Assembly (NCBI GenBank): GCA_019651435.1
Contig: BOYI01000001.1
Coordinates: forward strand, 434,001 to 498,000
Direction of reading: 5' to 3'
Source of the DNA: Pelagibacteraceae bacterium
GTDB taxonomy: Bacteria > Pseudomonadota > Alphaproteobacteria > HIMB59
DNA: 64,000 nt
Shown: positions 9,936-56,875 of the stretch, piece after piece
Numbering within the stretch: the first letter of the stretch is position 1
How the letters are laid out: each line of letters starts with the position of its first letter
Program-made: the position numbers and the translations under genes
Notes under the pieces: model-generated
Seen by the model: the letters and a program-made list of their open reading frames with translations, nothing else
Databases searched by the model: none
Told to the model about the DNA's origin: nothing

Positions 9936-10701
9936 CTTTATTTGAAATTCTTTTAGTAATTTTGAAGTATAATCTATATGGTAATATCCTACCAAATTTC
10001 ATCAGAATATTAAAAGGAAAAGGGAAGGATATCTCAAATCCTTTTTGATAAATTTTTGAAAATATTATTTTTGCTGCTTTTTCAGCGGACATAAGAAAGG
10101 GCATTTTAAACTGATTGATACTAGTAGCTGGTGTTTCTACAAAACCAGGATTAATAAGCTTGATATTAACCTTCGGCAAGTCGATTTTGAGCGCTTCAGC
10201 TAAATTTATTAATGCTGATTTAGATGGCCCATAGAGAATTGATCTTGGTAGACCTCTATAGCCAGCTACAGAGGAAATTATAGCTATAGTATGAGAGTGA
10301 GTTAGCTCAAAAAAGGATTTTATTTTTTCGATGATAAGATAAATGCTTAAAACATTAACATTAAAAGTCTCTTGAGCATTGATAAATTTAAAATTTTGGA
10401 AGTTCTCAGGGATATATATGCCAGCATTTAATATAAATGTATTGATATTTTTAAATTTTGAAAAAATTTCTTCAAAAATTTTGTTAGTATTCTGAAAATT
10501 ATTTAAATCTATTTGATAAAAATAAAAGCTATCAGGAAAATCGATAAAAAATTTTTTGATTTTATTCTTATCTCTTCCTAAGCCGATGACAATCCAATTA
10601 TTTTTCAAATAAATTTCTGATAAAGCATAACCTATACCACTGGTAGCCCCTGTAATTATAATAATCTTATTTTGTGTATTGTTGGATAAAATTTCTTGCA
10701 T
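9925..10701 (-). CDS. Short-chain dehydrogenase/reductase
   Basis: 258-residue classical SDR. The nucleotide-binding motif is 'IIIITGATSGIGYAL', the 'LNAGIY' strand corresponds to NNAG, and the catalytic set is 'AIISSVAGYRG' (Ser) and 'YGPSKSAL' (Tyr-x3-Lys). Substrate is unknown. The C-terminal 'PYRLYFKITKRISNK' segment is basic and may be peripheral to the membrane. It overlaps the photolyase-like gene upstream by about 35 bases and purE downstream by 11, so it sits inside a tight minus-strand run. Confidence 0.8.
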   Translation of the reverse strand: MQEILSNNTQNKIIIITGATSGIGYALSEIYLKNNWIVIGLGRDKNKIKKFFIDFPDSFYFYQIDLNNFQNTNKIFEEIFSKFKNINTFILNAGIYIPENFQNFKFINAQETFNVNVLSIYLIIEKIKSFFELTHSHTIAIISSVAGYRGLPRSILYGPSKSALINLAEALKIDLPKVNIKLINPGFVETPATSINQFKMPFLMSAEKAAKIIFSKIYQKGFEISFPFPFNILMKFGRILPYRLYFKITKRISNKDEK

Positions 10702-12145
10702 TTTTAAGGTGACTATCCAATTTGCTTTTTTCCATTTTTATAACAGAATGATACATCATTGAAAGTCTATGGTTTGTTTTAAAATAATCTTTATGCCTAT
10801 AAATGAAACTCCAATATAAACCATCAACTATACTAGACCATTCACCTTTTTTATAGTTGCTCATTTTTAACAAGTAATTAGATCCACAAAGATATGGTTT
10901 CGTTGCAAAAATGCCTCCATCACTAAATAGACCCATACCAAATACATTTGGAGTCATAACCCAATCTGAAGAGTCTATGAAGGTTTCCATAAACCATTTA
11001 TATACTTCGTTAGGAGCTATACCTGATAAATTCATTAAATTTGATAAAACCATCAACCTTGGTATGTGATGAACATAGCCATTTTTTTTTAAATTATTAA
11101 TTGTATCATCCAAAATTGGGATATTTGTGCTCCCTTCATACCAATGTTTGGTAAGTTTTTTCTTATGATTAAAGAAATTATTTTTATGAAATTGATCATA
11201 ATTTTTTAGATTCATGTATCTTATAAATTCTCTCCAACCAATAACCTGTCTTGTGAAACCTCCAAATTATTTAGACCCGGATCTTTATAGTCAATATCTT
11301 TAATCTCATTGACTATATCTTCAGGGGTAATCAGCCCCATATTTAAGGGAGCGCTTAGTAGGCTATGGTTTATAAATTCATCATCAGTACTAATAAAATC
11401 TTCATAATCACCAAAGTGGATAATTTTTCTGAATAAAAAAGTTAAACTTTTTCGTGTATCTTTTTGATTGAAAGGAAAAATAATATTTTCATTAATTTCT
11501 CCAAAATGAGATTGAAAATAAGTATCAATTAATTTTTTGATATCTTTATAAAATGGTGATTTGAAAGTAGGCTGATTATATTTTAAATAGTCTTTCGGCA
11601 GTCTTTTCCTATTTTCGCCATCAAAACTCCATTTTCCTCCCAGAGGATTTCCATTTTCTATAAGTATATCTAACTTTTTCCTGATGCTGCTGTAAAAACT
11701 AGCAAGTTGAACTTTTTATTTTGATAAACTTATAATCGTTTTCTTGAAGTAAAAACATAGGTGATTTAATGAACTCATATTTAACTTTCTGTTTGTTACA
11801 ATACTTTTCAAATTTATTTCGAAATAATTGATCTTCTATTTCAAAAAGATTAATTTTTTCAATATTATTTTTTTTTAAAAAAAAATTTAATCCCTCAAAG
11901 TAATCTTTGTACTCTTTAATATTTTTTTCTAAATCAATATAAGTAATGTTGAAATTATTTTTTTTAAGATATTCATGATACTCTCTCATACATCCTAAAA
12001 AATAATAAATTTTTTGTTTGTGATGTTTAAAATATGTGCACAAGCCCATATCTTCTTGCATAAAGAAAATAGAATTCTTTTTAAATGAAGATAAATATTT
12101 CTTATCGAATAATTGATTGCCGAGAATTAAAAAAGCTTCTTTCAA
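10667..12145 (-). CDS. Photolyase/cryptochrome-like protein (DPRP family), Fe-S cysteines absent, frameshifted
   Basis: Belongs to the group of deoxyribodipyrimidine photolyase-related proteins and Fe-S bacterial cryptochromes. The N-terminal Rossmann part reads 'AFLILGNQLF'. The FAD domain has 'QVIGWREFIRY', 'NGYVHHIPRLMVLSN' and 'SDWVMTPNVFGMGLFSDGG'. Frameshifts are near 11700 and near 11235; joined length is about 490 residues. In Fe-S members the segment after 'KPY' carries Cys-x2-Cys and a later Cys-Pro-Phe. Here it reads 'YKKGEWSSIVDGLYWSF' with none of these cysteines, inside an uninterrupted frame. DNA repair or light sensing is inferred from the family. Confidence 0.8.
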
Positions 12146-14332: not shown

Positions 14333-15872
14333 CAGATTACAGCCAATATAAATCATGGCCTTTTGTTGAGGCCAAAAAAATCCTCAAGCGATTAGAGAAT
14401 GGACAGTCAAAGAAGAAAATAATTTTTGAAACTGGATATGGCCCATCAGGACTTCCTCACATAGGAACGTTCGGAGAAGTATTAAGAACAAATATGGTTC
14501 GTTTTTGCTTTGAAAAGTTAACTGGTTTAGAAACTGATCTTATTGCATTTTCTGATGATATGGATGGTTTTAGAAAAGTTCCTGATAATGTTCCTAAAAA
14601 AGAACAGCTATCAAAATATTTAGATTATCCCTTAACTACAGTTCCTGACCCCTTCAACATATGCAATAGTTTTGGAGAACATAATAATGCTAAATTAGTT
14701 GAGTTTTTAAATAGGTTTAACCTTCCTTTCACCTTTCAGAGCTCCACTCAGGCTTATAAGTCAGGTGTATTTAATGAAACAATTAAAAAAATTCTCTTGA
14801 ATTATGAAAAAATTTTAAATGTAGTGCTACCGACTCTGGGAGAAGATCGTAGAAAAACATATAGCCCATTTTTTCCCATTGATGAAAATACTGGTAAAAT
14901 TTTACAAGTTCCTGTTAATGAAATTAATACTGACGACTTTACTATCTCGTTTACACATGAAGGAAAAAATTATGTAAAGTCAGTTCTTGATGGCCAATGT
15001 AAACTTCAATGGAAGGTTGATTGGGCAATGCGCTGGGCAGCTTTTGGTGTTGACTATGAAATGTGTGGAAAAGATTTAACTGAAAGCTACGTATTATCTT
15101 CAAAAATATGTCGAATAATTGGTTCAAAACCACCAGAGAATTTAATTTATGAGTTATTTCTTGATGAGAATGCTGAAAAATAAGCAAATCTAAAGGGAAT
15201 GGCATAAGTATTGATGACTGGCTGAAATATTCAATTGAAGAGAGTCTATCTATGTTTATGTATCAAAGACCAACTACAGCAAAAAAATTATATTTTGACG
15301 TCATTCCAAAAAATACAGATGAATATTTAAGTCATTTAAATAAATGGCAAGATGAAGAATTGCCCGATAATCCTACTTGGCATATTCATAAAAATAATAA
15401 TCCTGGATACCAATCAAAAATCAATTATAGCTTAATTCTTAATTTAATTTCAGTTTGTAAATCAAATGATCCAAATGTAATTATGGGCCTCATTAAAAAC
15501 TATCAGACAACATTTAGCTCTATTGAATTAGACTATATTAATAGAATGATCTCTTGTGGAATTAATTATTTTAATGATTTTATTCAACCTAAATTAAAAT
15601 TTAAAATTCCAAACTCAAAAGAATTATCTATACTGCAAAATGTGGTTTCAGAAATTAACAAAATTGATGATTCTGCTGAGGCAGATGTTTATCAATCAGC
15701 TATCTTTAGTGTTGGTAAGAATTCAGAATTTAAAGATGATATAAAGAGTTTCTTCAAACTTATTTATGAAGTAGTTTTTGGACAAGAAAATGGCCCTAGA
15801 CTCGGATCTTTTATTAAAATTTATACCAAAGATAAAACTGTAGAGCTCTTTAATTCAAAGCTTAATGTATAG
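14329..15872 (+). CDS. lysK: Lysyl-tRNA synthetase, class I (one frameshift)
   Basis: Class I LysRS, the archaeal-type enzyme also found in many alphaproteobacteria. The HIGH-like motif is 'GYGPSGLPHIGTFGE' and the KMSKS-like motif is 'KISKSKGNG', split by a frameshift near 15178-15185. Further family segments are 'DMDGFRKVP', 'WKVDWAMRW' and the helical C-terminal anticodon-binding domain. Joined length is about 514 residues. The start is TTG at 14329, overlapping the ferredoxin stop; the frame gives 'MTDYSQYKSWPFVEA'. It overlaps pyrD by 8 bases at its 3' end. Confidence 0.93.
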
Positions 15873-16908
15873 CTTAGCTCATCGGATATTAAAAAATTTA
15901 AACCCAGAAACAGCTCATAACTTATCAATTCAAGGTCTAAAACTTGGCCTTTATCCAAAAGTTAATTTTAAAAATACTAATGTATTAGAACAAACAATAT
16001 GGGGTAGGAGATTTCAAACACCAATTGGTTTGTCTGCAGGTTTTGATAAGAATGCTGAAGTAATAAAACCTATTTTGAATATGGGTTTCAGTTTTACTGA
16101 ATTAGGCACTGTTACTCCATTACCTCAAAAAGGGAACCCTAAACCAAGAATTTTCCGCTTTCCTCAACACCAAGCTTTAGTTAACTCTCTTGGTTTCAAT
16201 AATAAAGGATTAGATAATTTTGAAAGAAATATAGTTAACACAAACAATTCTGAAAATTTCCAAGATAAAATTATTGGAATTAACATTGGTAATAATAAAG
16301 AAACCAAGGAAATCATACATGATTTGGAAAAACTCTTTGATCGTCTTTATAGACTTGGTGATTATATTGTCATTAATCTATCATCCCCGAATACACCAGG
16401 ATTGAGAGATAACCTAAAATCTCAATCTTTTGAGAAAATTGTAAATCACCTGCAAAGGCTAAGAGAAAAAAATAATTCTAAAATTCCTATCTTATTCAAG
16501 ATTTCGCCAGACATATCAGAGCAAGAAAAGAAGGACATAGCTTTGATCTCTTTGGCCAATGATGTTGATGGATTAATTTTAACTAATACTTCAATAGATA
16601 AATCCACACTAGGTACTGAAATGAATGGTGGAATTAGTGGGAGACCACTTTTTTTTAAATCTAATAAAATAATTAGGGATTTTTATACTTTAACTTCAGG
16701 TAAGATAAGAATTATAGGTGTTGGAGGAGTATTCACAGCTAATGACATTTTAACAAAAATGAAATTGGGGGCTTCTTTGGTTCAACTTTATTCAAGCTTT
16801 ACCTATCAAGGACCTTATCATGTCAAAAAGATCACCTTAGATTTGATAGCCTTAATTCAACAAGAAGGATATCGAAATATATCTGAAGTAATAGGTCAAC
16901 ATTCTTGA
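15865..16908 (+). CDS. pyrD: Dihydroorotate dehydrogenase (quinone), class 2
   Basis: 347 residues; FMN enzyme that oxidises dihydroorotate and passes electrons to ubiquinone at the inner membrane. The N-terminal amphipathic helices 'YSLAHRILKNLNPETAHNLS' are the class 2 membrane-association region. Then come 'PIGLSAGFDKNAEVI', 'GTVTPLPQKGNPKPRIFR', 'VINLSSPNTPGLR' with the catalytic Ser, and 'IIGVGGVFTANDI' plus 'LVQLYSSFTYQGP' for FMN phosphate binding. Uninterrupted. Overlaps both neighbours, so part of the plus-strand operon from the ferredoxin onward. Confidence 0.96.
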   Translation: MYSLAHRILKNLNPETAHNLSIQGLKLGLYPKVNFKNTNVLEQTIWGRRFQTPIGLSAGFDKNAEVIKPILNMGFSFTELGTVTPLPQKGNPKPRIFRFPQHQALVNSLGFNNKGLDNFERNIVNTNNSENFQDKIIGINIGNNKETKEIIHDLEKLFDRLYRLGDYIVINLSSPNTPGLRDNLKSQSFEKIVNHLQRLREKNNSKIPILFKISPDISEQEKKDIALISLANDVDGLILTNTSIDKSTLGTEMNGGISGRPLFFKSNKIIRDFYTLTSGKIRIIGVGGVFTANDILTKMKLGASLVQLYSSFTYQGPYHVKKITLDLIALIQQEGYRNISEVIGQHS

Positions 16909-17727
16909 AAAATATATCTTCGTTTAAGGATTTAGTAGATAAATATGATTACTTTTTATTTGATCAATGGGGCGTATTACACAATGGTCAAAAAAAATTT
17001 GGAAAAGCTGAAGAGTGCTTAAAGCTTTTAAAAGAGAGAAACAAAGAAAGTAGTGCTAATTTCTAATAGCTCATTACCATCAAAGTTTTCAATTTCTAAT
17101 TTGAAAAGAATTGGTATTTCAGAGAGCTTATATTCTTATTGTATAACCAGCGGTCAAATAGCTTTAGATAATTTAAAAAAAGATATATATAAAAAATATG
17201 GAAATAAATGTTTTCCTATTCGCCTTCCTAGAGAAAAGATTAAATACTTTAATCTAGATATTGAAAAAAATGCTTCCAAAGCAAATTTTGGAATGATAGC
17301 AGATATAGATAAAGGACTCTCAATACTTGACTTTGCAAATCTCTTAGACAATTTAATGAAAAATAACCTTCCTTTATTGTGTTCTAACCCTGACTATTTA
17401 GTTGATGATGGCAACAAATTATCAATGTGTGGAGGAACAATTGCACAGTTATATGAAGATATGGGAGGAAAAGTTTTCAGATATGGTAAACCCTATGAGC
17501 CAATTTATTCAAATATTGAAAAGAAAATGAATATTAAAAATAGGAAAAAAGTCTTAGTTATCGGAGATTCTTTGTGGCATGATATTTGTGGCGGTCTAAA
17601 AATGGGCTATGACAGATTGTGGATTAAAAAGGGTATCCATAGGGCGCAATTAAAAATTAGTGTTGAAATCAATCCGCTATTGGACAAATATCCTCCAACT
17701 TTTGCCCAAAATGAATTAAAACTTTAA
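16905..17727 (+). CDS. HAD-superfamily class IIA hydrolase (TIGR01459-like), one frameshift
   Basis: Haloacid-dehalogenase phosphatase related to NagD. Motif I is 'YFLFDQWGVLHNG' (catalytic Asp, with Gln in place of the usual second Asp, as in the alphaproteobacterial TIGR01459 group). Motif II is 'LISNSS' and motif III/IV 'VLVIGDSLWHDICGGLKMGY'. A one-base shift near 17045-17055, just before motif II, separates the parts. Joined length about 274. The start is a TTG at 16905 overlapping the pyrD stop. The substrate is unknown; sugar or nucleotide phosphates are typical for relatives. Confidence 0.8.
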
Positions 17728-17777: not shown

Positions 17778-18071
17778 ATGTCTAGAGCTTGTGAAATAAC
17801 AGGAAAAAAGCACCAAACTGGTCACAATGTTAGCCATTCTAATATTAAAACCAAGAGGCGCTTTATGGTCAATCTTAATAACGTTACCCTTTTTAGTGAG
17901 TCACTCAAAAGAAAATTTCGTTTCAGAATAGCGTCTTCCACACTTAGAACTATTGATAAGCATGGCGGTCTTGATCAATATTTAAATAAAACTAGTTCCA
18001 GATTACTTACTGATAAGGCTCTAAAATTGAAGAAACAAATTGAGAAAAACGTTAGCCAAAAAGCTAACTAA
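17778..18071 (+). CDS. rpmB: 50S ribosomal protein L28
   Basis: 97 residues. 'SRACEITGKKHQTGHNVSHS' and 'NIKTKRRFMVNLNNV' match bacterial L28 and its long alphaproteobacterial form, followed by 'RIASSTLRTIDKHGGLDQYL'. Basic, rRNA-binding large-subunit protein. Its TAA is directly followed by the ATG of the transporter gene. The promoter candidate immediately upstream fits separate high expression. Confidence 0.97.
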   Translation: MSRACEITGKKHQTGHNVSHSNIKTKRRFMVNLNNVTLFSESLKRKFRFRIASSTLRTIDKHGGLDQYLNKTSSRLLTDKALKLKKQIEKNVSQKAN

Positions 18072-18842
18072 ATGCTTCAAGATTTTTTTTTAAATTTATC
18101 CTCTTCTTTAAATTCTTTACCCGTAATAACAATTTGGCTATTTCAAATAATTTTTTGTTATTTATCTATTTTATTATCATTAAAGTTTTTTGGTAAAACA
18201 GGTATCTATGTCTATGTCTCAATTGCAATTATCCTTGCGAATATTCAAGTTCTAAAAGTAGTCGAGTTTCCATTTTTTCCTGAGCCCATGGCTTTAGGTA
18301 CAATATTATTTATCTCAATTTTCTTATGCACGGATATTCTTAATGAATATTATGATAAAAAATCTGCAACCAAATGTATTTATTTGGGAATAAGTGCTTA
18401 TCTATTCTCTACTATTATAATGTTCTTAACTATCTCTTTTAATCCTATCGACCCAAGTATACATCAAAATTGGGGATGGAGTTATGAGATGCATCAATCT
18501 ATTACAACAATTTTTCTTCCTCAGTTCCCAATTATTGCTGCCAGTATCTGTGCTTTTTTTCTTAGTCAAAAATTAGATATTTTTATTTTTTCTTATTTGA
18601 AAAATAAGGACAATAGTAAACTCTGGCTCAGAAATAATGTATCGACCATCATTTCGCAATTTATTGATAATCTTATTTTTAGCATTCTTGCATTTAATCT
18701 ACTTTCATCAAATCCTGTACCATTATTTGATTTAATCGTTTCTTATGGAATTGGTATCTATTTAATTAGAATAATATTAAGTTTATTTGATACGATTTTT
18801 ATATATTTAGCGAAAAACTTCCTACCAAAAAATATTGACTAG
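18072..18842 (+). CDS. YhhQ/VUT-family queuosine precursor transporter
   Basis: 256 residues with about seven hydrophobic helices. Family features are 'EFPFFPEPMALGTILF' and 'FLCTDILNEYYDKKSATKCI' (the D-x-L-N-E motif typical of the family), with 'ISQFIDNLIF' near the end. E. coli YhhQ imports preQ0 and preQ1; relatives in other bacteria take up queuine or q. It overlaps tgt by 8 bases, so transport and insertion of the base are translationally coupled. Start is the ATG right after rpmB. Confidence 0.88.
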   Translation: MLQDFFLNLSSSLNSLPVITIWLFQIIFCYLSILLSLKFFGKTGIYVYVSIAIILANIQVLKVVEFPFFPEPMALGTILFISIFLCTDILNEYYDKKSATKCIYLGISAYLFSTIIMFLTISFNPIDPSIHQNWGWSYEMHQSITTIFLPQFPIIAASICAFFLSQKLDIFIFSYLKNKDNSKLWLRNNVSTIISQFIDNLIFSILAFNLLSSNPVPLFDLIVSYGIGIYLIRIILSLFDTIFIYLAKNFLPKNID

Positions 18843-20037
18843 CTTCTTTGAAGTTTTAAAACATAGCTCAAATTCTAGAGCTCGATTGGGTAATATAAAT
18901 ACCGCCCATGGAGAAATTAAAACCCCTTCATTTATATTTTGTGGAACAAAAGCCACAGTAAAATCAATTCTCCCACAGCAATTAAAATTAGCTAAAACAC
19001 AAATTATTTTATCCAATACTTACCATCTGATGATTCAACCTGGACCAGAAATTATTGCTCAAGAAAAAGGATTGCAAAATTTTACTCAATGGGGAGGCCC
19101 CATGATGACTGACAGCGGAGGCTACCAAATTTTTTCTCTAGGTCATGGCTCTGTATCAGAAGAGATCAAAGGCAAAAATAAAAATATCAAAAGAAAGTCT
19201 TTAATCAAAATATCAGAGGAGGGAGCTACATTTCGAAATTATCTCAATGGAGATAAGGTTTATTTAACTCCAGAGAGATCCATAGAATTACAAAGGCATT
19301 TTGGTGCAGATTTAATTTTTGTACTTGATGAGTGCACTCCATTTAATGTTTCAAAAAAATACACTGAAAACTCAATGTATCTCAGTCACCGTTGGGCCAA
19401 AAGATGCTCAGCAGCATTTAAAACTATGTTTGCCAATTACGAATCTCAAATGGGATCAGCAGGTAAGCAATATTTATATGGAATTGTGCAAGGAGGTGTC
19501 TATGAAGATTTAAGAAAAATTGCCTGTGAGGAGACTTGCTCAGGCGATTACCATGGATTGGCCATAGGGGGTTCTCTTGGAGGTACCAAAGAACAAATGC
19601 ATGATATTTTTTCTTTTTGTTCTGAATTAATTGATACATCAAAACCTGTTCATGTTTTAGGTATTGGAGGGTTGGACGATATTCTGCATGGTGTTAGTTG
19701 TGGGTATGATACTTTTGACTGCGTTTCTCCTACTAGAATAGCACGGCATGGTATTATGTTATCTCGAATTAATTCTAAAGGAATTAATTTAAATAATTCA
19801 AAGTTCAAAAATGACCATTCATTATTAGATGATGAATGTGAATTGTCAGAAATCAATAATTTTACAAAATCTTATTTGCATCATTTATTTAAATCTAATG
19901 AAATCTTGGGAATAGTTATTTTGTCTTTATATAATATATGGTTTATGAATAAATTTTTTGAAGATATTAGAACCAATATTGAAAGTGATACTTTTGAAAA
20001 GTTTAAAAAAAATTTTTTTGATAATTTAACTAAATAA
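18835..20037 (+). CDS. tgt: tRNA-guanine transglycosylase, zinc ligands largely lost
   Basis: 400 residues, uninterrupted. Exchanges G34 of GUN-anticodon tRNAs for a queuosine precursor base. Catalytic features are intact: '[11 protein letters not shown]' with Asp93 and '[12 protein letters not shown]' with nucleophile Asp295. The substrate-loop equivalent of bacterial 'GGLAVGE' reads '[12 protein letters not shown]' at 244-254. The usual C-x-C-x2-C zinc motif before 'YLHHL' is '[20 protein letters not shown]': Cys335 is kept, but Leu337 and Ile340 replace the next two Cys, and Tyr366 replaces the His ligand. The start is TTG at 18835, inside the transporter gene. Converges on cobT with 12 bases of overlap. 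Confidence 0.93.
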
Positions 20038-21816: not shown

Positions 21817-22772
21817 CTAAAAATCTTCACCAAATGTTCTTTGGAAATATTCTTTATATATATCTATTTCGCTTTCATCACATTTGTTTAAAAAAGTCAT
21901 AGCAAGAGAACTTTGAACATTATTAATTAATTTATAGTTTTCTGCCCACATAATGACCGTACGAGGGCTCATGACAATAGAGATATCTTTTGTTCAAATC
22001 CTTTTCTTGTCAAATTAGCCATTTGAACCATTGATTTAATTAATTTTTTTTCTTCGGAATTAGCTGAAATTTTTTTAGAGATAATTTCTATTTCTTTTTC
22101 TTCATCTAGGTAGTTTAACTTTGCAACAATATTCCATCGATCCATCTGACCTTGATTGATTTGATTAGTTCCATGATAAATACCAGAAGTATCTCCAAGA
22201 CCAACAGTATTAGCTGTAGCAAAAATTCTAAAAAATGGATGAGGTGTCAGAACTTTACTTTGATCCAATAAAGTTAATTTACCTTCAGTTTCTAATACTC
22301 TTTGAATGACGAACATTACATCTGGCCTCCCAGCATCATATTCATCAAAAACCAAGGCTACATTGTTCTGAAATGCCCAAGGTAAAATTCCCTCTTGGAA
22401 TTCTGTAACTTGTTTGTTGTCCTTTAAGACAATTGAGTCTTTTCCAATAAGATCAATTCTCGATACATGACTATCTAAATTAATTCTTATACATGGCCAG
22501 TTTAGCCTGGCACAAACCTGCTCTATGTGAGAAGACTTACCAGTTCCATGAAGACCTTGGAGAAATACTCTTTTGTTAAATTTTAAACCTAATAGAATTG
22601 CAACAGTTGTATCATCATCGAAAACATAATTTTTATCAATTGGGGGGCAATGATCAGCTCTTTTTACAAATTGTGGGACTTCAAAATCATATTTTATTCC
22701 AAAGAGTTCTGCTGAAGAGACATTACTAGTCTCATTTAAATCTTCTTTTTTTATAGACTCAATCTTATTCAT
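21817..22772 (-). CDS. cobS: CobS-like AAA+ (MoxR-type) ATPase, one frameshift
   Basis: Walker A 'FLQGLHGTGKSSHIEQVCAR', Walker B 'NVALVFDEYDAGRP' and sensor 'FFRIFATANTVGLGDTSGIY' match the CobS cobaltochelatase ATPase. The main frame covers 267 residues. A one-base shift near 21985-21995 leads into 'MSPRTVIMWAENY' and the family C-terminus 'YFQRTFGEDF', total about 318. It starts just after the J-domain gene (4-base overlap) and ends right at cobT, so the three form an operon. Hexameric ring with CobT in the known enzyme. Confidence 0.92.
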
Positions 22773-23281
22773 TTTTTATATCTTTCTAAAAGGTAATTAT
22801 AAGCTTCAACAATTTCTCTAAATTTATCAATACTATTCTTACTGTTACCCTTTATATCTGGATGATGCTTTTTCGCCAGTTCTTTGTACCTTTTTTTTAT
22901 CAAGTTTAAATCGGTTTTAATATCTAAATCAAGCTTTGAAAGAGACCAGAGTAACTTATTTGAGTGGCCAGGTTGTTTGGCATTTGGATTTTCGAAAGAA
23001 CCCATATCTTCCCCATTTATTGAGAAGTTATAAAATTTTGCACCCGAGCCAAAGCTTTTGGTAGGTCTTCTCCAGATAGTATCAAATCTGATGTCGTTTT
23101 CTATTTCATCTGAATTCATTTTATTGTGATAATTCCAGCTTTTATTAAATTCTTTAATGTGCTCCAAGCAAAACCATTGATAATCATTTAAACTTTCATA
23201 TCCTGTAGGTGCACGATAATCCCCTTCCAATTCACAACCGGGGAAGTTACAAATTTTTTTTTCTTTATTATTTTTATTCAT
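22769..23281 (-). CDS. J-domain (DnaJ-like) protein encoded with cobST
   Basis: 170 residues. A Cys-containing N-terminal module ('ICNFPGCELEGDYRAP', 'WFCLEHIKEFNKSWNYHNKM') precedes a C-terminal J domain with the diagnostic 'AKKHHPDIKG' loop at about residues 138-147. Proteins of this layout are typical companions of cobS and cobT in alphaproteobacteria. It probably recruits DnaK to an assembly step; which client is unknown. The ATG is 14 bases from the ATG of divergent bolA. Confidence 0.85.
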   Translation of the reverse strand: MNKNNKEKKICNFPGCELEGDYRAPTGYESLNDYQWFCLEHIKEFNKSWNYHNKMNSDEIENDIRFDTIWRRPTKSFGSGAKFYNFSINGEDMGSFENPNAKQPGHSNKLLWSLSKLDLDIKTDLNLIKKRYKELAKKHHPDIKGNSKNSIDKFREIVEAYNYLLERYKK

Positions 23282-23295
23282 CTATGATTAATTGT

Positions 23296-23553
23296 ATGAA
23301 TTTAGAGAAGATTAAAAACCTTTTAATTAATATTAGTCAATTTGAAATTATCAAAATAATTGACAACAGTTCAAGTCATGCTAGTCATAAAGGAGTTCAG
23401 GGCTTATTGAATAATTTAACACATGTTGAAATTCATGTAAAAAATCCAAATAATTTAAATAGATTAGATATCCACCGACAAATATATAATAATTTAAATT
23501 CAGAAATAGAGTTAGGTTTACATTCTATTGAAATAAAAATATTAAAGAATTAG
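23296..23553 (+). CDS. bolA: BolA family protein
   Basis: About 85 residues. 'SSSHASHKGVQGLLNNLTHV' matches the class II KH-like BolA fold with its His-bearing loop, followed by the family 'RLDIHRQIYNNLNSE' helix and the closing 'GLHSIEIKI' strand. BolA proteins pair with monothiol glutaredoxins in Fe-S cluster handling. An alternative in-frame ATG lies four codons upstream at 23284. The 3' end overlaps the convergent CorC-like gene by 12 bases. Confidence 0.85.
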   Translation: MNLEKIKNLLINISQFEIIKIIDNSSSHASHKGVQGLLNNLTHVEIHVKNPNNLNRLDIHRQIYNNLNSEIELGLHSIEIKILKN

Positions 23554-24790
23554 CTTAACTTTATTTATCTTATTTATTGATCGTGAAATTATTTGTAGTT
23601 TAAATTCTTTATAAGTTACAATTTTACCTACTTTTGGAATTTCTTTCGCAATATCGTGAATTAATCCAGATAAAGTAACAAATTGATCTGGAAAATCTAT
23701 ACTCAAACTTCGGTTTATTTCTCTATACTAGCATTTCCATTAAATAAAAAATTATGATCATCTATTTTTCTAAATAGCTCTCATCAGTATCTGTCTCATC
23801 AAAAATCTCACCTATAATTTCCTCAATTATATCCTCTAAAGTTATTAGCCCTTGTATTTCACCATACTCATCCACAACTAATGCCATGTGCTCACGTTGA
23901 CTTTTAAAATCTATTAATTGTTTTATCGCAAGTTTGTTTTGTGGAATGAATACAGGTTGAAATGAATTTTTTTCTAAATAATTGTTATCACCATTATCAT
24001 TAAATGAAGGATCTTTTAATAGTTCTCTTATATCAATTATACCAATCAGGTTATTAAAATTATTTTTGATTAATGGAATTCTTGTAAATGTTGAATTATT
24101 TATTGCTTTTAGATTATTTTTAAAACTATCCTCTAAATCAAGATAAAGAATTTCATTCCTATGGGTCATGAGCTCGTCTACTTTTAAATTTTTCAGTTCA
24201 AGTAAATTACTCATATACTCTACTTCATTGTCTCCCTTTTTTGAAAGTTGCCTTTGTAATTGAACTGCTCCCTCAAATTCTTCTTTAATGGTTTTAGATT
24301 GATCGGTTTCAAGGCTAAGACCAAGTTTTTTAATAATTTTCTCTGAAATATAGTTAATAAGTTTAACAATTGGTTTAATTAATTTTGTATAAATATAAAA
24401 AAATCTAGCAACTTTTAATGCATAGAGCATAGGTCTATTAATTGCAAAAATTTTCGGAGTCACCTCAGAAAATATAACAATCATAATAGTCATAAATATG
24501 GTAGCCACTGTTACACCAAAACCGCCAAACTCAGAAACCAATAACTCTGTCATTAGGGCCGTAGCTAGGATATTAAAAACGTTATTGGCTAAGAGTATTC
24601 CTGTAATAAATTCATCTTTAAGCTCTTTAATTTTCAAAATAAAATTTGAATTTTTGATACCTTTTTCATTTTGTCTATGCGCTTGAAGCTTAGAAACAGC
24701 AGTCAACGCCGTTTCAGATCCAGATGAAATTGCAGAAAGTAGAAGCAATATTAAAATTGCTATCAATTTTAATAATATCAATAACGTCAT
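23542..24790 (-). CDS. CNNM/CorC-family membrane protein with CBS domains (frameshift near C-terminus)
   Basis: DUF21 (CNNM) transmembrane domain at residues 1-150 with 'LSAISSGSETALTAVSKLQA', then a CBS pair ('VDELMTHRNEILYLDLEDSF' and 'ALVVDEYGEIQGLITLEDII'). After 'DTDESYLEK' the frame shifts near 23730-23760 into a CorC/HlyC-type domain: 'DFPDQFVTLSGLIHDIAKEI' and 'KIVTYKEFKLQIISRSINKI', ending at 23542. Total about 415 residues. Relatives are involved in magnesium or other cation export at the inner membrane. Confidence 0.85.
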
Positions 24791-24815: not shown

Positions 24816-25845
24816 CTAATTTTTAAAAGTGATATTTTTAACGAAGCCACCTTTGTCATCAATACAGATAAAGCTAACATTATCATCATTTACTTTTTTA
24901 TCAAATTTCATTTTATTTATTAATTTCTTAATATTTTTCTTCGAAATATATTTTGAATAATTTAAAGGCAAGTTAAAATTTCGAATTATGTTAGTTATAG
25001 GTTCAATAGATTTTTTATAATAACCTAAGTGTTGAGATATTTTCAATTCAATTATCATTCCAATGGCTATTGCTTCACCATGTTTTATAGAATTATTATA
25101 TGAATTTGAGTTTTCTATTGCATGTCCTATAGTGTGACCAAAATTTAATACAGCTCTAGAACTTCTCAAATTAGACTTTTCCCTAAAGTCAGATACATAG
25201 TTCAATTTAGTTTTGATTGAATTTTCAATTATCGAAAATAAAAATTTTATCATTATTTTTTTGTTTTTCTAAAATCTTTTTTAAAGGATGTGGCTTAATG
25301 AGAGAATATTTTATAACTTCTGCAAAACCACATGCTATCTCTCTTTTAGGCAGAGTCTTAATGAATTCAGGACAAACTAGAACCTTTTTTGGTAGATAAA
25401 AAGAGCCGATTAAATTTTTTCCATATTTGCTGTTTACTCCTGTTTTCCCACCAATAGAACTGTCTACCATAGCCAAAGTGAAGTTGGGATCATGATATGA
25501 TCAATACCTCTAAGTAGAGAGGAGGCTAAAAATCCAGAAAAATCTCCAACTGTCCCTCCACCAAAAGAGTAAATTTTACTTTTTCTTTGAATTCCTATTT
25601 TGATTATTTTTTCAATGTTCTTTTGAAAGTTTTTTAAGTTTTTTATTTTTTCATTTCCTTGAACTATTAAAGTTCTACTTTGAAATTTTTTGAAAATTTT
25701 TTATAAGCCTGATACTAGTTAAAGATTTATCAATTATTAAAATATCAAGATGTGATATTTGTTTATTTAACTGCTTTTCTAATTCTCTATAACTAATTAT
25801 ATTAATAATATGTTTCTCTTTATTGATTAACTTGCTAATTATCAT
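24816..25845 (-). CDS. aroB: 3-dehydroquinate synthase (several frameshifts)
   Basis: NAD- and metal-dependent second enzyme of the shikimate pathway. Recognisable pieces in order: 'IYSFGGGTVGDFSGFLASSL', 'MVDSSIGGKTGVNSKYGKNL', 'LPKREIACGFAEVIKYSLI', 'RAVLNFGHTIGHAIEN' and 'IKHGEAIAIGMIIE', holding the metal-binding Glu and His residues. Shifts lie near 25685, near 25470-25480 and near 25225-25255. Joined length is about 343 residues. The start at 25845 overlaps the aroK stop, as in the classic aroKB operon. Confidence 0.92.
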
Positions 25846-26539: not shown

Positions 26540-27996
26540 ATAAATTTTTTCTTATATTTTTATGTATTCTTACTCCAAATATATTAAAAGCTAACTTTGA
26601 AGAGGATATAGCATTTCAGCTTCAAACAATTTCTCAAAATAACTTAATTACAGAAATTGAAACAAAAAATGATTTAATCAATTTAATTGAACAAATTGAA
26701 TTCAAAGATAATTTCTTCTACTCTTTATTTGATCCTTTGACCAATTCTGATATTTTTCCAAAATATTCTGATAATAAAGATTTCTTTTTTGAAAAAATAA
26801 AAACATTTTCAAATAAATCATATGGTTTTCAAATTAATTCTAATTTATTTGAAAAAATTTTATTTGAAAACTTCCAAGATCCTGAAATAAATCGCGCATA
26901 CCTCTTTAACCTTTTTCAATCAAATCAGGTAGAAAACTTGTGTGATTATTTAAATCAACTAGAGGGCAATCAAAAAAATTTTGATAATTTAATTGAGTTT
27001 AATATTGTTTGTCTTTTAAACGACAATCAAGATCAGCAAATTTCATTATTATTAGAAATTTATAGTGAAGATGAATTTACTAAACTTAATACTATTCTTT
27101 TGAAAGATTACTTAAATAAAAAAGATCTTAATGATGAATATAATTTATCTAAATTAGGAATTATTGATCTTTTTATACTTTCTTTAAAAGATGAAGCTAA
27201 TTTTTATATAGAGTATATTTCAAATATATTTGAATTGGAGCTATACAGAAAATCAAATGATTTAAAGGTATATGAATTAAATTACTTATTTAAAAATAGA
27301 ATTATAAATAATTCTCAGTATTTGTCATTACTCTCAACTTTAAATGAGAAACCCAAAGAATTACTTATGTTCAATGAGATTAATAAAGAAATAAACTATA
27401 ATAAAAAACTAGCTATACTAGAAAAGTATATTCCAGATATACAATTAGACTTATATGACCTATCTCGTTTAATTTATAATCAATTTAGAGAAATGCGTAT
27501 TACCTCTAGAAATTTAGATTACATAAATGCTTTAATCTTACTTTCTTTATATGAGAATTCCTCTTTTCTTGAAAATTTAAAAGTAGTTTTAAATGAAACT
27601 TCTGAAGAAAATTTAGAGAATAATTATTTAGCTTTAGGAATTAAAAGATATTTATCAAAAACTGATCAATCTGAGCTTTATTCAGATAAAAGAAATGACT
27701 TAAAAAGCCCATTAATGCGTTTTTTCTTTTTAAGTGGAAATTTGAAGTTTGCTGATTTAGAAAAATCATTCATTGAGGAAAAAAAAGAGGTTCTTGTTGA
27801 CCCTATTTACTTATTTTATCTATCTGAGAACTTTAACCTAATTGAGAGCTATATCTATTATATTCAATTAAGTGAGGATTATTATAGTCTAAATGAATTT
27901 GACCTTTATTTTATAAATAAATATTTGATTGATAATGAATATTTAAAGAATGAATTCATAAAGTTATTTTTCAAAGTTCATTTATCTAATTTATGA
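26536..27996 (+). CDS. Secreted or periplasmic protein of unknown function (486 residues)
   Basis: N-terminal signal peptide 'MNKFFLIFLCILTPNILKAN' with a plausible cleavage near residue 19, then an Asn/Leu/Glu-rich, apparently all-helical body that may form alpha-solenoid repeats. No catalytic motif or cysteine cluster is evident. It is intact, which is notable for this window. It overlaps the xerC-like gene by 4 bases. In many alphaproteobacteria an unnamed large protein occupies this position between shikimate kinase and a tyrosine recombinase; I suspect it is that family, but sequence alone does not let me assign it. Confidence 0.7.
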   Translation: MNKFFLIFLCILTPNILKANFEEDIAFQLQTISQNNLITEIETKNDLINLIEQIEFKDNFFYSLFDPLTNSDIFPKYSDNKDFFFEKIKTFSNKSYGFQINSNLFEKILFENFQDPEINRAYLFNLFQSNQVENLCDYLNQLEGNQKNFDNLIEFNIVCLLNDNQDQQISLLLEIYSEDEFTKLNTILLKDYLNKKDLNDEYNLSKLGIIDLFILSLKDEANFYIEYISNIFELELYRKSNDLKVYELNYLFKNRIINNSQYLSLLSTLNEKPKELLMFNEINKEINYNKKLAILEKYIPDIQLDLYDLSRLIYNQFREMRITSRNLDYINALILLSLYENSSFLENLKVVLNETSEENLENNYLALGIKRYLSKTDQSELYSDKRNDLKSPLMRFFFLSGNLKFADLEKSFIEEKKEVLVDPIYLFYLSENFNLIESYIYYIQLSEDYYSLNEFDLYFINKYLIDNEYLKNEFIKLFFKVHLSNL

Positions 27997-28845
27997 ATTT
28001 AGATAGTCATCTTGATATATATAAAGAATTTTTACTTTCAGAAAAAAATCTTTCTCAAAATACTATTAATAATTACTTAGTCGATTTAAAACAATTTTTA
28101 ATATTTTTTGTTAAACATGAAAGTATTAATCAAAATATTGAGAAATATATTTCATCACTAAGAAAAAAAAATATTTCTAATGCTTCTATTAATAGAAAAA
28201 TATCATCTTTAAAAAATTTTCTAAAATTTCTTCATTCTGAAAAAATAATTAAAGATATCAATTTAGATATTTTTGAGTCCTTAAATAATTCAAAAAAAAT
28301 ACCTAAAGCTATTTCAAAAGATGAGATAGATAAAATTTTTAATTCTTTAAACAACTCTAATTATATAAATAAAAATATTTATATAATTATTTTAAAGTTA
28401 ATGTATTTATCTGGTTTGAGAATTTCAGAGGCTTTGGCCTTAAAATGGTCTGATTTATCAAAGGCTAATATGACTTTAAATATTTATGGAAAAGGTTCTA
28501 AAGAAAGAAAGTCATATTTGACATTGATTTTCTTGATACCTTATATTCTTTAAAAAAGATGAAGGTTTTATATTCAATATAAAAGGAAAAAAAATTTCAG
28601 TACGTTCAGTCAATAAATTCTTAGATAAAGCATATAAAGATGGTTTAATTGAATATAAAATTTCATCTCATGTTTTTCGACATTCATTTGCAACCTCGAT
28701 GTTAGAGAATGATGCTGATATCAGACATATTCAAAAATTATTAGGACACTCAAGTATTTCAACTACAGAAATTTATACTAAAGTAGCTAAATCTCTAAAA
28801 AAGAGTGTTTTAGACACTTATCATCCTTTAAAAAATAAATTATAG
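27993..28845 (+). CDS. xerC: Tyrosine recombinase XerC/XerD type (frameshifted)
   Basis: N-terminal SAM-like core-binding domain ('[19 protein letters not shown]', '[16 protein letters not shown]') and catalytic domain with Arg in '[15 protein letters not shown]', Lys in '[11 protein letters not shown]', then '[14 protein letters not shown]' (His-x2-Arg), '[19 protein letters not shown]' (His and nucleophile Tyr). Shifts near 28512-28525 and near 28555 fall between the Lys and the His-x2-Arg parts. Joined about 284 residues. Likely chromosome-dimer resolution at dif; whether XerC or XerD cannot be told from one copy. Confidence 0.88.
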
Positions 28846-52757: not shown

Positions 52758-52834
52758 GGGCGTGTAGCTCAGCTGGTTAGAGTACTTGCTCGACACGCAA
52801 GGGGTCACAGGTTCGAATCCTGTCACGCCCACCA
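52758..52834 (+). tRNA. tRNA-Val (anticodon GAC)
   Basis: Complete 77-base cloverleaf with encoded CCA: acceptor GGGCGTG/CACGCCC, D arm GCTC/GAGT, anticodon stem CTTGC/GCAAG, T arm ACAGG-TTCGAAT-CCTGT, discriminator A. The anticodon loop is TCGACAC, giving GAC at 52792-52794. Position 33 is C (52791) where U is nearly universal. Not part of an operon; sits between murJ and the PagL-like gene. Confidence 0.93.
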
Positions 52835-56749: not shown

Positions 56750-56875
56750 ATGAAAATTAAAAGCTCACTTAAATCTGCTAAAACTAGAGACAAGAACAAT
56801 CAATTAGTTAGAAGAAAAGGCAGATTGTACGTGATTAACAAAACTAACCCAAGAATGAAGGCCCGTCAGGGTTAA
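56750..56875 (+). CDS. rpmJ: 50S ribosomal protein L36
   Basis: 41 residues: starts '[17 protein letters not shown]' and ends '[20 protein letters not shown]'. This is the cysteine-free, 41-residue form of L36 typical of alphaproteobacteria, lacking the zinc-binding Cys/His. No Shine-Dalgarno is apparent. Stops 4 bases before the convergent trxB stop. Confidence 0.95.

What the first reader, a model, noticed from the sequence alone, without database searches (positions are those of the whole stretch)
18835..20037. tRNA-guanine transglycosylase that has lost its zinc site
Seen: Cys335 is the only remaining ligand of the canonical C-x-C-x2-C plus His set; Leu337, Ile340 and Tyr366 replace the other three, in an uninterrupted 400-residue frame whose flanking motifs ('YLHHL', 'NEILG') are conserved. 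Known: Zn in bacterial Tgt is structural and its ligands are normally invariant; catalytic Asp93 and Asp295 are present here. Inferred: coordinated loss of three ligands points to a zinc-independent Tgt subfamily, possibly a metal-sparing adaptation to a zinc-poor ocean. The rpmJ product here is also the zinc-free L36 form, but that is common in the class.
Basis: partly seen in the sequence, partly recalled or inferred. Interest (0 to 1): 0.7.

Follow-up and report, generated by a model that had tools for sequence, protein, structure and literature searches.

The report
Zinc-free queuine-type tRNA transglycosylase
An ocean bacterium's tRNA-editing enzyme has lost the zinc site that the enzyme is said to need; related bacteria lost it several separate times, so the zinc seems dispensable, and this version probably inserts scavenged queuine.

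Summary
In detail: tgt (18835-20037, +) is intact and has C335, L337, I340, Y366 where the zinc ligands Cys-Cys-Cys-His belong. It is no sequencing error: 0 of 31 genus genomes with tgt keep the set, including one on a single 1,410,127-bp contig (very probably HIMB59), while 17 of 17 sister-family genes read keep it. The reading is partly right. This is not one zinc-independent subfamily, and nothing points to an ocean adaptation. Of 198 Tgt sequences read from 195 alphaproteobacterial genomes, 37 lack a ligand (35 lack two or three), in 20 of 120 families; trees need at least 7 and 5 changes. Of 67 records not labelled alphaproteobacterial, 66 keep all four. Sinorhizobium meliloti, Shinella and Methylobacterium also lost it, and published S. 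meliloti genetics implies such an enzyme works. The fold is predicted intact. In this order tgt lies beside a queuosine-precursor transporter gene in 52 of 53 genomes with tgt, and queA is found in 0 of 60. Most likely: direct queuine salvage by a zinc-free Tgt. No metal or activity was measured.

The parts
18835..20037 (+). tgt, 400 aa, long-insert tRNA-guanine transglycosylase without the zinc ligand set
18072..18842 (+). queuosine-precursor transporter (QPTR/YhhQ family), 256 aa, overlaps the start of tgt by 8 bases
   Evidence: PF02592 135.1 bits; TIGR00697 134.4 bits, cut-off 50.95; far below the cut-off of NF008406, the preQ0/preQ1 transporter model (31.5 vs 252); beside tgt in 52 of 53 order genomes with tgt
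19837..19839 (+). C335, first ligand position, Cys kept here (Ala or Ser in 3 of 31 genus sequences)
19843..19845 (+). L337 at the second ligand position (Cys in the 62 zinc-type long Tgts compared)
19852..19854 (+). I340 at the third ligand position
19930..19932 (+). Y366 at the His ligand position (Tyr in 31 of 31 genus sequences; His in 62 of 62 zinc-type long Tgts)
19918..19941 (+). residues 362-369 on helix 357-383: I362, Y366 and W369, each fixed in 31 of 31 genus sequences and in at most 3 of 62 zinc-type long Tgts; proposed hydrophobic repacking at the empty metal site
   Evidence: packing is inferred, no coordinates were available
19141..19206 (+). region of the about 18-residue insert (residues about 103-124) that marks the long type; 29 residues between flanks instead of 11; residues 105-114 under pLDDT 50 in the model
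19567..19581 (+). GGSLG base-pocket motif (residues 245-249), without the Val of GGLAVG
   Evidence: role of Val233 and Gly from passages of PMC3660597 and PMC6165067
19111..19113 (+). D93, Asp of TDSGG (general acid/base by homology)
19717..19719 (+). D295, Asp of FDCV (nucleophile by homology)
19405..19620 (+). span holding four genus-gained cysteines C191, C231, C235, C262 (possible but unproven alternative site)
17778..18071 (+). 97-aa ORF directly upstream (bL28-like by eye, not tested); perhaps on the same transcript
   Evidence: name recalled

Best explanation
A functional tRNA-guanine(34) transglycosylase whose small C-terminal zinc knuckle has become metal-free: hydrophobic residues (L337, I340, Y366, with I362 and W369 on the same helix as Y366) stand where zinc was bound, while the barrel and the two catalytic Asp remain. 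It is of the long-insert, open-pocket Tgt type found almost only in genomes without queA, so it most likely inserts queuine, imported by the neighbouring transporter, directly into tRNAs with GUN anticodons (salvage, as in Chlamydia and eukaryotes). Shown: ligand loss, conservation, selection, recurrence across the class, gene pair, no queA hit and no queC hit over cut-off in the order. Inferred: absence of bound zinc, hydrophobic packing, queuine as substrate, activity of this protein.
For: Loss in 31 of 31 genus sequences with hydrophobic residues at positions 337 and 366 throughout and at 340 in 29 of 31, Gly in 2; purifying selection. The model is confident through the former zinc subdomain (block means 93-98 over residues 321-390; a zinc-type control gives 93.1 overall). 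Recurrent loss: 37 of 198 sequences, 20 of 120 families; fewest changes 7 in the long type and 5 in the short type on trees built without the site's columns. S. [quoted passage not shown] Long Tgt: 55 of 58 in genomes without a queA hit; short Tgt: 134 of 140 in genomes with one (Fisher p 4e-38, not corrected for kinship). In the order: queA 0 of 60, queC over cut-off 0 of 60, transporter gene beside tgt in 52 of 53.
Against: No metal content or activity was measured. The pocket reads GGSLG, not exactly the published queuine signature GG[LS][AS]G (PMC11570991). Three of 58 long-type sequences lie in genomes with queA (G160, G265, G177). Genomes with tgt as the only Q gene can take preQ1 (Bartonella, and as proposed Pelagibacter; PMC11570991). 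In Z. mobilis Tgt the Val233Gly change opened the pocket but gave no queuine insertion (PMC3660597). S. meliloti Tgt is of the short type and keeps one ligand Cys; I read strain Ak57, not the mutated strain 1021, and the passages seen report complementation for queF only and no tRNA measurement, so this is an analogy, not a test of this protein. Missing queA in incomplete genomes can be a gap in the data.
Confidence: 0.65

Rival explanations
1. Zinc-free Tgt that salvages preQ1 (not queuine), leaving preQ1 as the end product, as proposed for Bartonella and Pelagibacter.
For: Genomes with tgt as the only Q gene can do this (PMC11570991); QPTR proteins carry preQ0/preQ1 in some bacteria and queuine in others (same paper).
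Against: 0 of 58 long-type sequences have the GGLAV pocket, which that paper gives for Bartonella and Pelagibacter; the transporter falls far below the preQ0/preQ1 transporter model NF008406.
Confidence: 0.2
2. Metal-sparing adaptation to the zinc-poor ocean.
For: The window's L36 is also the zinc-free form; a named Pelagibacteraceae Tgt lacks two ligands (L297).
Against: The sister family of the same order keeps the site in 17 of 17 read; soil and plant Hyphomicrobiales lost it; ZnuA-family proteins are found in both families; losers in the class sample have genomes from 0.8 to 5.6 Mb. Habitats of the unnamed losers are unknown.
Confidence: 0.1
3. The metal site has moved: four cysteines gained on helices 174-200, 224-236 and 252-263 (C191, C231, C235, C262) form a new site.
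For: Each is absent from 15 of 15 sister-family sequences and present in 30 or 31 of 31 genus sequences; they are 4 of 33 fixed differences. C231 and C235 are one helix turn apart.
Against: L030 (G013) lacks two of the four and still has an open gene; no coordinates were available to measure distances.
Confidence: 0.06
4. Local sequencing errors or a decaying gene.
For: The assembly is prone to frameshifts: 7 of 17 ORFs of G030 that match the window are split there.
Against: Ligand set absent in 31 of 31 genus genomes, open frame, dN/dS 0.06-0.20.
Confidence: 0.01

Closest known systems
Bacterial Tgt of E. coli / Zymomonas mobilis (PF01702, TIGR00430; preQ1 type)
   Different: Zinc ligand set lost; about 18-residue insert after FSL; pocket GGSLG instead of GGLAVG; no queA hit in the genome
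Queuine-inserting bacterial Tgt (Chlamydia trachomatis type; PMC11570991)
   Same: Genome without queA, transporter of the same family, open base pocket; a Chlamydiae MAG relative (L305) has the same insert length and a GGSMG pocket
   Different: That Chlamydiae relative keeps the zinc ligands; here three are gone; the host is presumably a free-living marine bacterium
Sinorhizobium meliloti Tgt (SMc01206 of strain 1021; strain Ak57 gene read as L330)
   Same: Zinc ligand set also lost (one Cys left), yet required in the published genetics (PMC3568095)
   Different: Short type with GGLAVG pocket and a queuosine synthesis pathway; different ligands replaced (S, T, N)
C- (zinc-free) ribosomal proteins such as S4
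   Same: Same kind of change: a zinc-binding protein of translation with zinc-free variants (PMC3087516, abstract)
   Different: There the abstract reports old forms spread by gene transfer; here the losses look lineage-specific within one class

Membership tests
Bacterial tRNA-guanine(34) transglycosylase (PF01702 / TIGR00430) | Profile score over curated cut-off | tested here: met
   388.3 vs 306.75 and 383.3 vs 26.3 bits
Bacterial tRNA-guanine(34) transglycosylase (PF01702 / TIGR00430) | Both catalytic Asp residues | tested here: met
   D93 and D295, invariant in the 25 long-type sequences of A1
Bacterial tRNA-guanine(34) transglycosylase (PF01702 / TIGR00430) | Tgt barrel fold | tested here: met
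Zinc-containing Tgt | C-x-C-x2-C plus His ligand set | tested here: not met
   C335, L337, I340, Y366; so it is not filed as a zinc Tgt
Queuine-type bacterial Tgt | Genome lacks queA | tested here: met
   no hit in 0 of 60 order genomes, the window's own included (the model rings in 9 of 14 control genomes)
Queuine-type bacterial Tgt | Pocket signature GG[LS][AS]G (PMC11570991) | tested here: inconclusive
   GGSLG: the Val is gone and Gly present, but one position differs from the printed pattern
Queuine-type bacterial Tgt | Inserts queuine into tRNA | not testable with these tools
   needs an assay
QPTR queuosine-precursor transporter (neighbour) | TIGR00697 score over cut-off | tested here: met
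   134.4 vs 50.95 bits

The most novel reading that the evidence does not exclude
In the HIMB59-type genus the Tgt has not only lost its old zinc knuckle but gained, on the same branch, four conserved cysteines on three successive barrel helices (C191, C231, C235, C262): the metal site may have been relocated from the C-terminal knuckle to the outside of the barrel, in an enzyme that also takes queuine.
Probability: 0.05. Interest if true: 0.75.

Novelty: new variant of a known kind. Interest (0 to 1): 0.52.

Why it matters
Tgt is listed in print as requiring zinc (PMC9508795, passage) and its zinc residues as highly conserved (PMC4425180, passage). Repeated loss within one class, including in the genetically tractable Sinorhizobium meliloti, makes the question of what the zinc is for directly testable with natural variants, and gives a list of replacements that seem to work. 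It also points to direct queuine salvage in presumably free-living ocean bacteria; PMC11570991 ties the switch to queuine to intracellular life.

Tried and rejected
Sequencing error or pseudogene: rejected. Zinc-poor ocean: not supported. Loss tied to the queuine type: rejected; 11 of 58 long and 26 of 140 short sequences lack a ligand (Fisher p 1.0). A Trp before the His position as compensation in the short type: 23 of 27 losers but also 70 of 124 keepers in the tree set, so not specific. preQ1 riboswitch in the window: none over Rfam's gathering scores; the one match is a tRNA at 52758-52831.

Rows dropped: 65 of the 260 Tgt-bearing class genomes are not in the count of 198. One of them, G037, was read and keeps all four ligands, but my duplicate filter removed both of its copies (L037, L051; also L036 of G040, outside the class sample); it lacks a queA hit, so long-type figures with it would be 56 of 59 without queA and 11 of 59 lost. 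The other 64 were never read: the two listings stop at 150 rows, and I fetched most but not all listed rows; the unread rows score under about 481 bits to TIGR00430, so the rate of loss may be off. queA was called at E <= 0.001 (199 of 289; 191 over cut-off). The 67 comparison records were the best matches from a capped scan, chosen by likeness to this protein; 2 of the 67 (L295, L317) are labelled only 'bacterium'. Tree sets: 88 long rows, 16 of them named records, and 151 short rows, 11 of them named records.

Papers: PMC11570991 parts 1 and 3 of 6 plus passages; passages only of PMC3568095, PMC3660597, PMC6165067, PMC4425180, PMC9508795, PMC2770081, PMC13416341, PMC10308909, PMC10734472, PMC3815206; abstract and outline of PMC3087516. 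No title or abstract start in the listings of searches is about a zinc-less Tgt; one search (queuosine with HIMB59) found 0 papers, and none of the 8 listed of 54 papers in one search contains queuine. Most subscription journals are missing from that library.

Full report
WHAT IS THERE. The frame 18835-20037 (+) encodes 400 residues from a TTG start. TTG stands there in 28 of 29 genus genes whose start was read, GTG in one. The start overlaps by 8 bases the end of a gene for a queuosine-precursor transporter (18072-18842; PF02592 and TIGR00697 over cut-off). The protein passes the Tgt models by a wide margin. Against E. coli Tgt the ligand positions read C335, L337, I340, Y366 (E. coli residue numbers recalled). 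Both catalytic Asp residues are present.

NOT AN ERROR. Of 37 genus genomes searched 31 have the gene, and none of the 31 has the ligand set; one of them (L046) is read only to residue 370. The six without a hit are incomplete genomes (54-84% complete). One of the 31 is G030, a single contig of 1,410,127 bp, 99% complete, 91% identical over the whole protein. Its size matches strain HIMB59 (1410 kb, Table 1 of PMC3815206), so the window very probably belongs to the HIMB59/AEGEAN-169 lineage. The named single-cell genome AG-900-E05 (L250) shows the same ligand residues. dN/dS in seven genus pairs is 0.06-0.20. The window's assembly does carry frameshifts: of 17 ORFs of G030 (120 aa or more) that match the window, 7 come in two or three pieces; tgt is whole.

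WHEN IT WAS LOST. In the sister family of the same order 22 of 23 genomes have tgt; I read 17, and all 17 keep C-x-C-x2-C and His. The genus is one clade (support 100) beside that family (support 84) on a tree made without the zinc-site and insert columns. Three genus members that stand apart from the rest (L029, L030, L046) have Ala or Ser at the first Cys as well; the other 28 keep it.

NOT ONE SUBFAMILY. I read and counted 198 Tgt sequences from 195 of the 260 Tgt-bearing genomes among 289 sampled Alphaproteobacteria. Thirty-seven lack at least one ligand: 2 lack one, 15 lack two, 20 lack three. They fall in 20 of 120 family codes. In 19 of these no read sequence keeps the set; in the twentieth, f5, one does, and it groups with the non-alphaproteobacterial rows in a genome rated 8% contaminated, so it may be a contaminant. 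The fewest changes on the trees, named records included, are 7 for the long type and 5 for the short type. Many inner branches are weak (30 of 84 open in the long tree, 46 of 147 in the short one), so the exact number is unsure, and well-supported branches alone force fewer. The replacements differ between lineages (for example CLIY, LNSH, SCAN and LLSH in ligand order). Of 67 records not labelled alphaproteobacterial 66 keep the set; the exception is a Magasanikbacteria MAG (L273). Against the class this is Fisher p 2e-4, with no correction for kinship.

A PROBABLE WORKING EXAMPLE. Tgt of Sinorhizobium meliloti (L330), Shinella (L332) and Methylobacterium bullatum (L333) carries Ser, Cys, Thr or Ala, and Asn at the four positions; Sphingomonas (L334), Magnetococcus (L335) and Paracoccus (L331) keep the full set. 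In L330, strain Ak57, the ORF upstream looks like queA (by eye), as the neighbouring numbers SMc01206 (tgt) and SMc01207 (queA) of strain 1021 suggest. [quoted passage not shown] This implies that a Tgt without the zinc set works in vivo. Limits: the strain 1021 sequence was not read here; the passages seen report genetic complementation for queF only; 'HPLC' and 'mass spectrometry' do not occur in the text; the queA mutant had little symbiotic defect. In print Tgt is listed as requiring zinc for activity (PMC9508795, passage).

A LOOSE END. Compared with the sister family, four of 33 fixed differences are gained cysteines, C191, C231, C235 and C262, and a His at 328 is also new. One genus member (L030) lacks two of the four cysteines. 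A moved metal site is thus possible but not favoured.

WHAT IT PROBABLY DOES. The protein is of a long-insert type (about 29 residues between flanks, where the short type has 11). The pocket is GG[SCT][LF]G in 57 of 58 long sequences and GDCLG in one; the short type has GGL[AS][VI] in 139 of 140 and GGWLF in one. In the class sample 55 of 58 long sequences are in genomes without a queA hit, and 134 of 140 short ones in genomes with one. The counter-examples are G160, G265 and G177 (long with queA) and G082, G213, G264, G156, G338 and G141 (short without). In the HIMB59 order queA is found in 0 of 60 genomes and queC over cut-off in 0 of 60 (54 of 60 give hits below cut-off, at most 27.4 bits). 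The transporter is found in 52 of 60, with its matched domain at most 98 bases from the tgt match in all 52. The one genome with tgt and no transporter hit (G026) has its contig end 50 bases upstream of tgt. Opening the pocket at Val233 lets queuine fit (PMC3660597, PMC6165067, passages), though Val233Gly alone gave no queuine insertion in Z. mobilis Tgt. A long insert and a pocket without the Val also occur in Chlamydiae, Anaerolineae, Trueperaceae and Solirubrobacterales records that keep the zinc set. Among other classes of the phylum the best score was 297 bits, below the lowest long-type score of about 335 in the class sample. So the pocket switch and the zinc loss look like separate events: loss is as common in the short type (26 of 140) as in the long (11 of 58).

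THE OCEAN STORY. Loss is not confined to the sea (Hyphomicrobiales of soil and plants), the sister family of the same order keeps the site, and ZnuA-family proteins are found in 47 of 60 order genomes, both families included. A metal-sparing cause is therefore unproven. Relaxed need for the knuckle in this class, followed by drift or repacking, is the simpler account; that too is inference.

VERDICT. What is missing is metal and activity measurement.

Noticed in passing
window 10673-11715, 14494-15869, 16905-17724, 21820-22772, 23545-24721, 24822-25845, 27993-28842: Seven genes (among them class I LysRS and an AAA ATPase beside cobT; others named by eye only) are split by frameshifts relative to G030; with 69% completeness at nearly full genome size this points to indel errors in the assembly.
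   Followed up: partly
window 19405-19620 (C191, C231, C235, C262 of tgt): Four cysteines gained and nearly fixed in this genus, absent from 15 of 15 sister-family sequences, on three successive helices of the barrel.
   Followed up: partly
window 56750-56875 (+): Ribosomal protein L36 without cysteines, the zinc-free form (named by its motif).
   Followed up: no
window 22769-23281 (-): J-domain protein with a Cys/His-rich N-terminal stretch that looks like a kept metal motif, a few genes from the Tgt that lost one.
   Followed up: no
L113, L114 (1.2-Mb single-contig genomes) and L297 (Pelagibacteraceae): Small-genome short-type Tgts have lost zinc ligands in three different ways (CNLH, VCSH, SNCH).
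   Followed up: partly
L162, L094, L297: Sequences with only one or two ligands missing (CCSH, CGCH, SNCH), as expected if the site decays stepwise.
   Followed up: no
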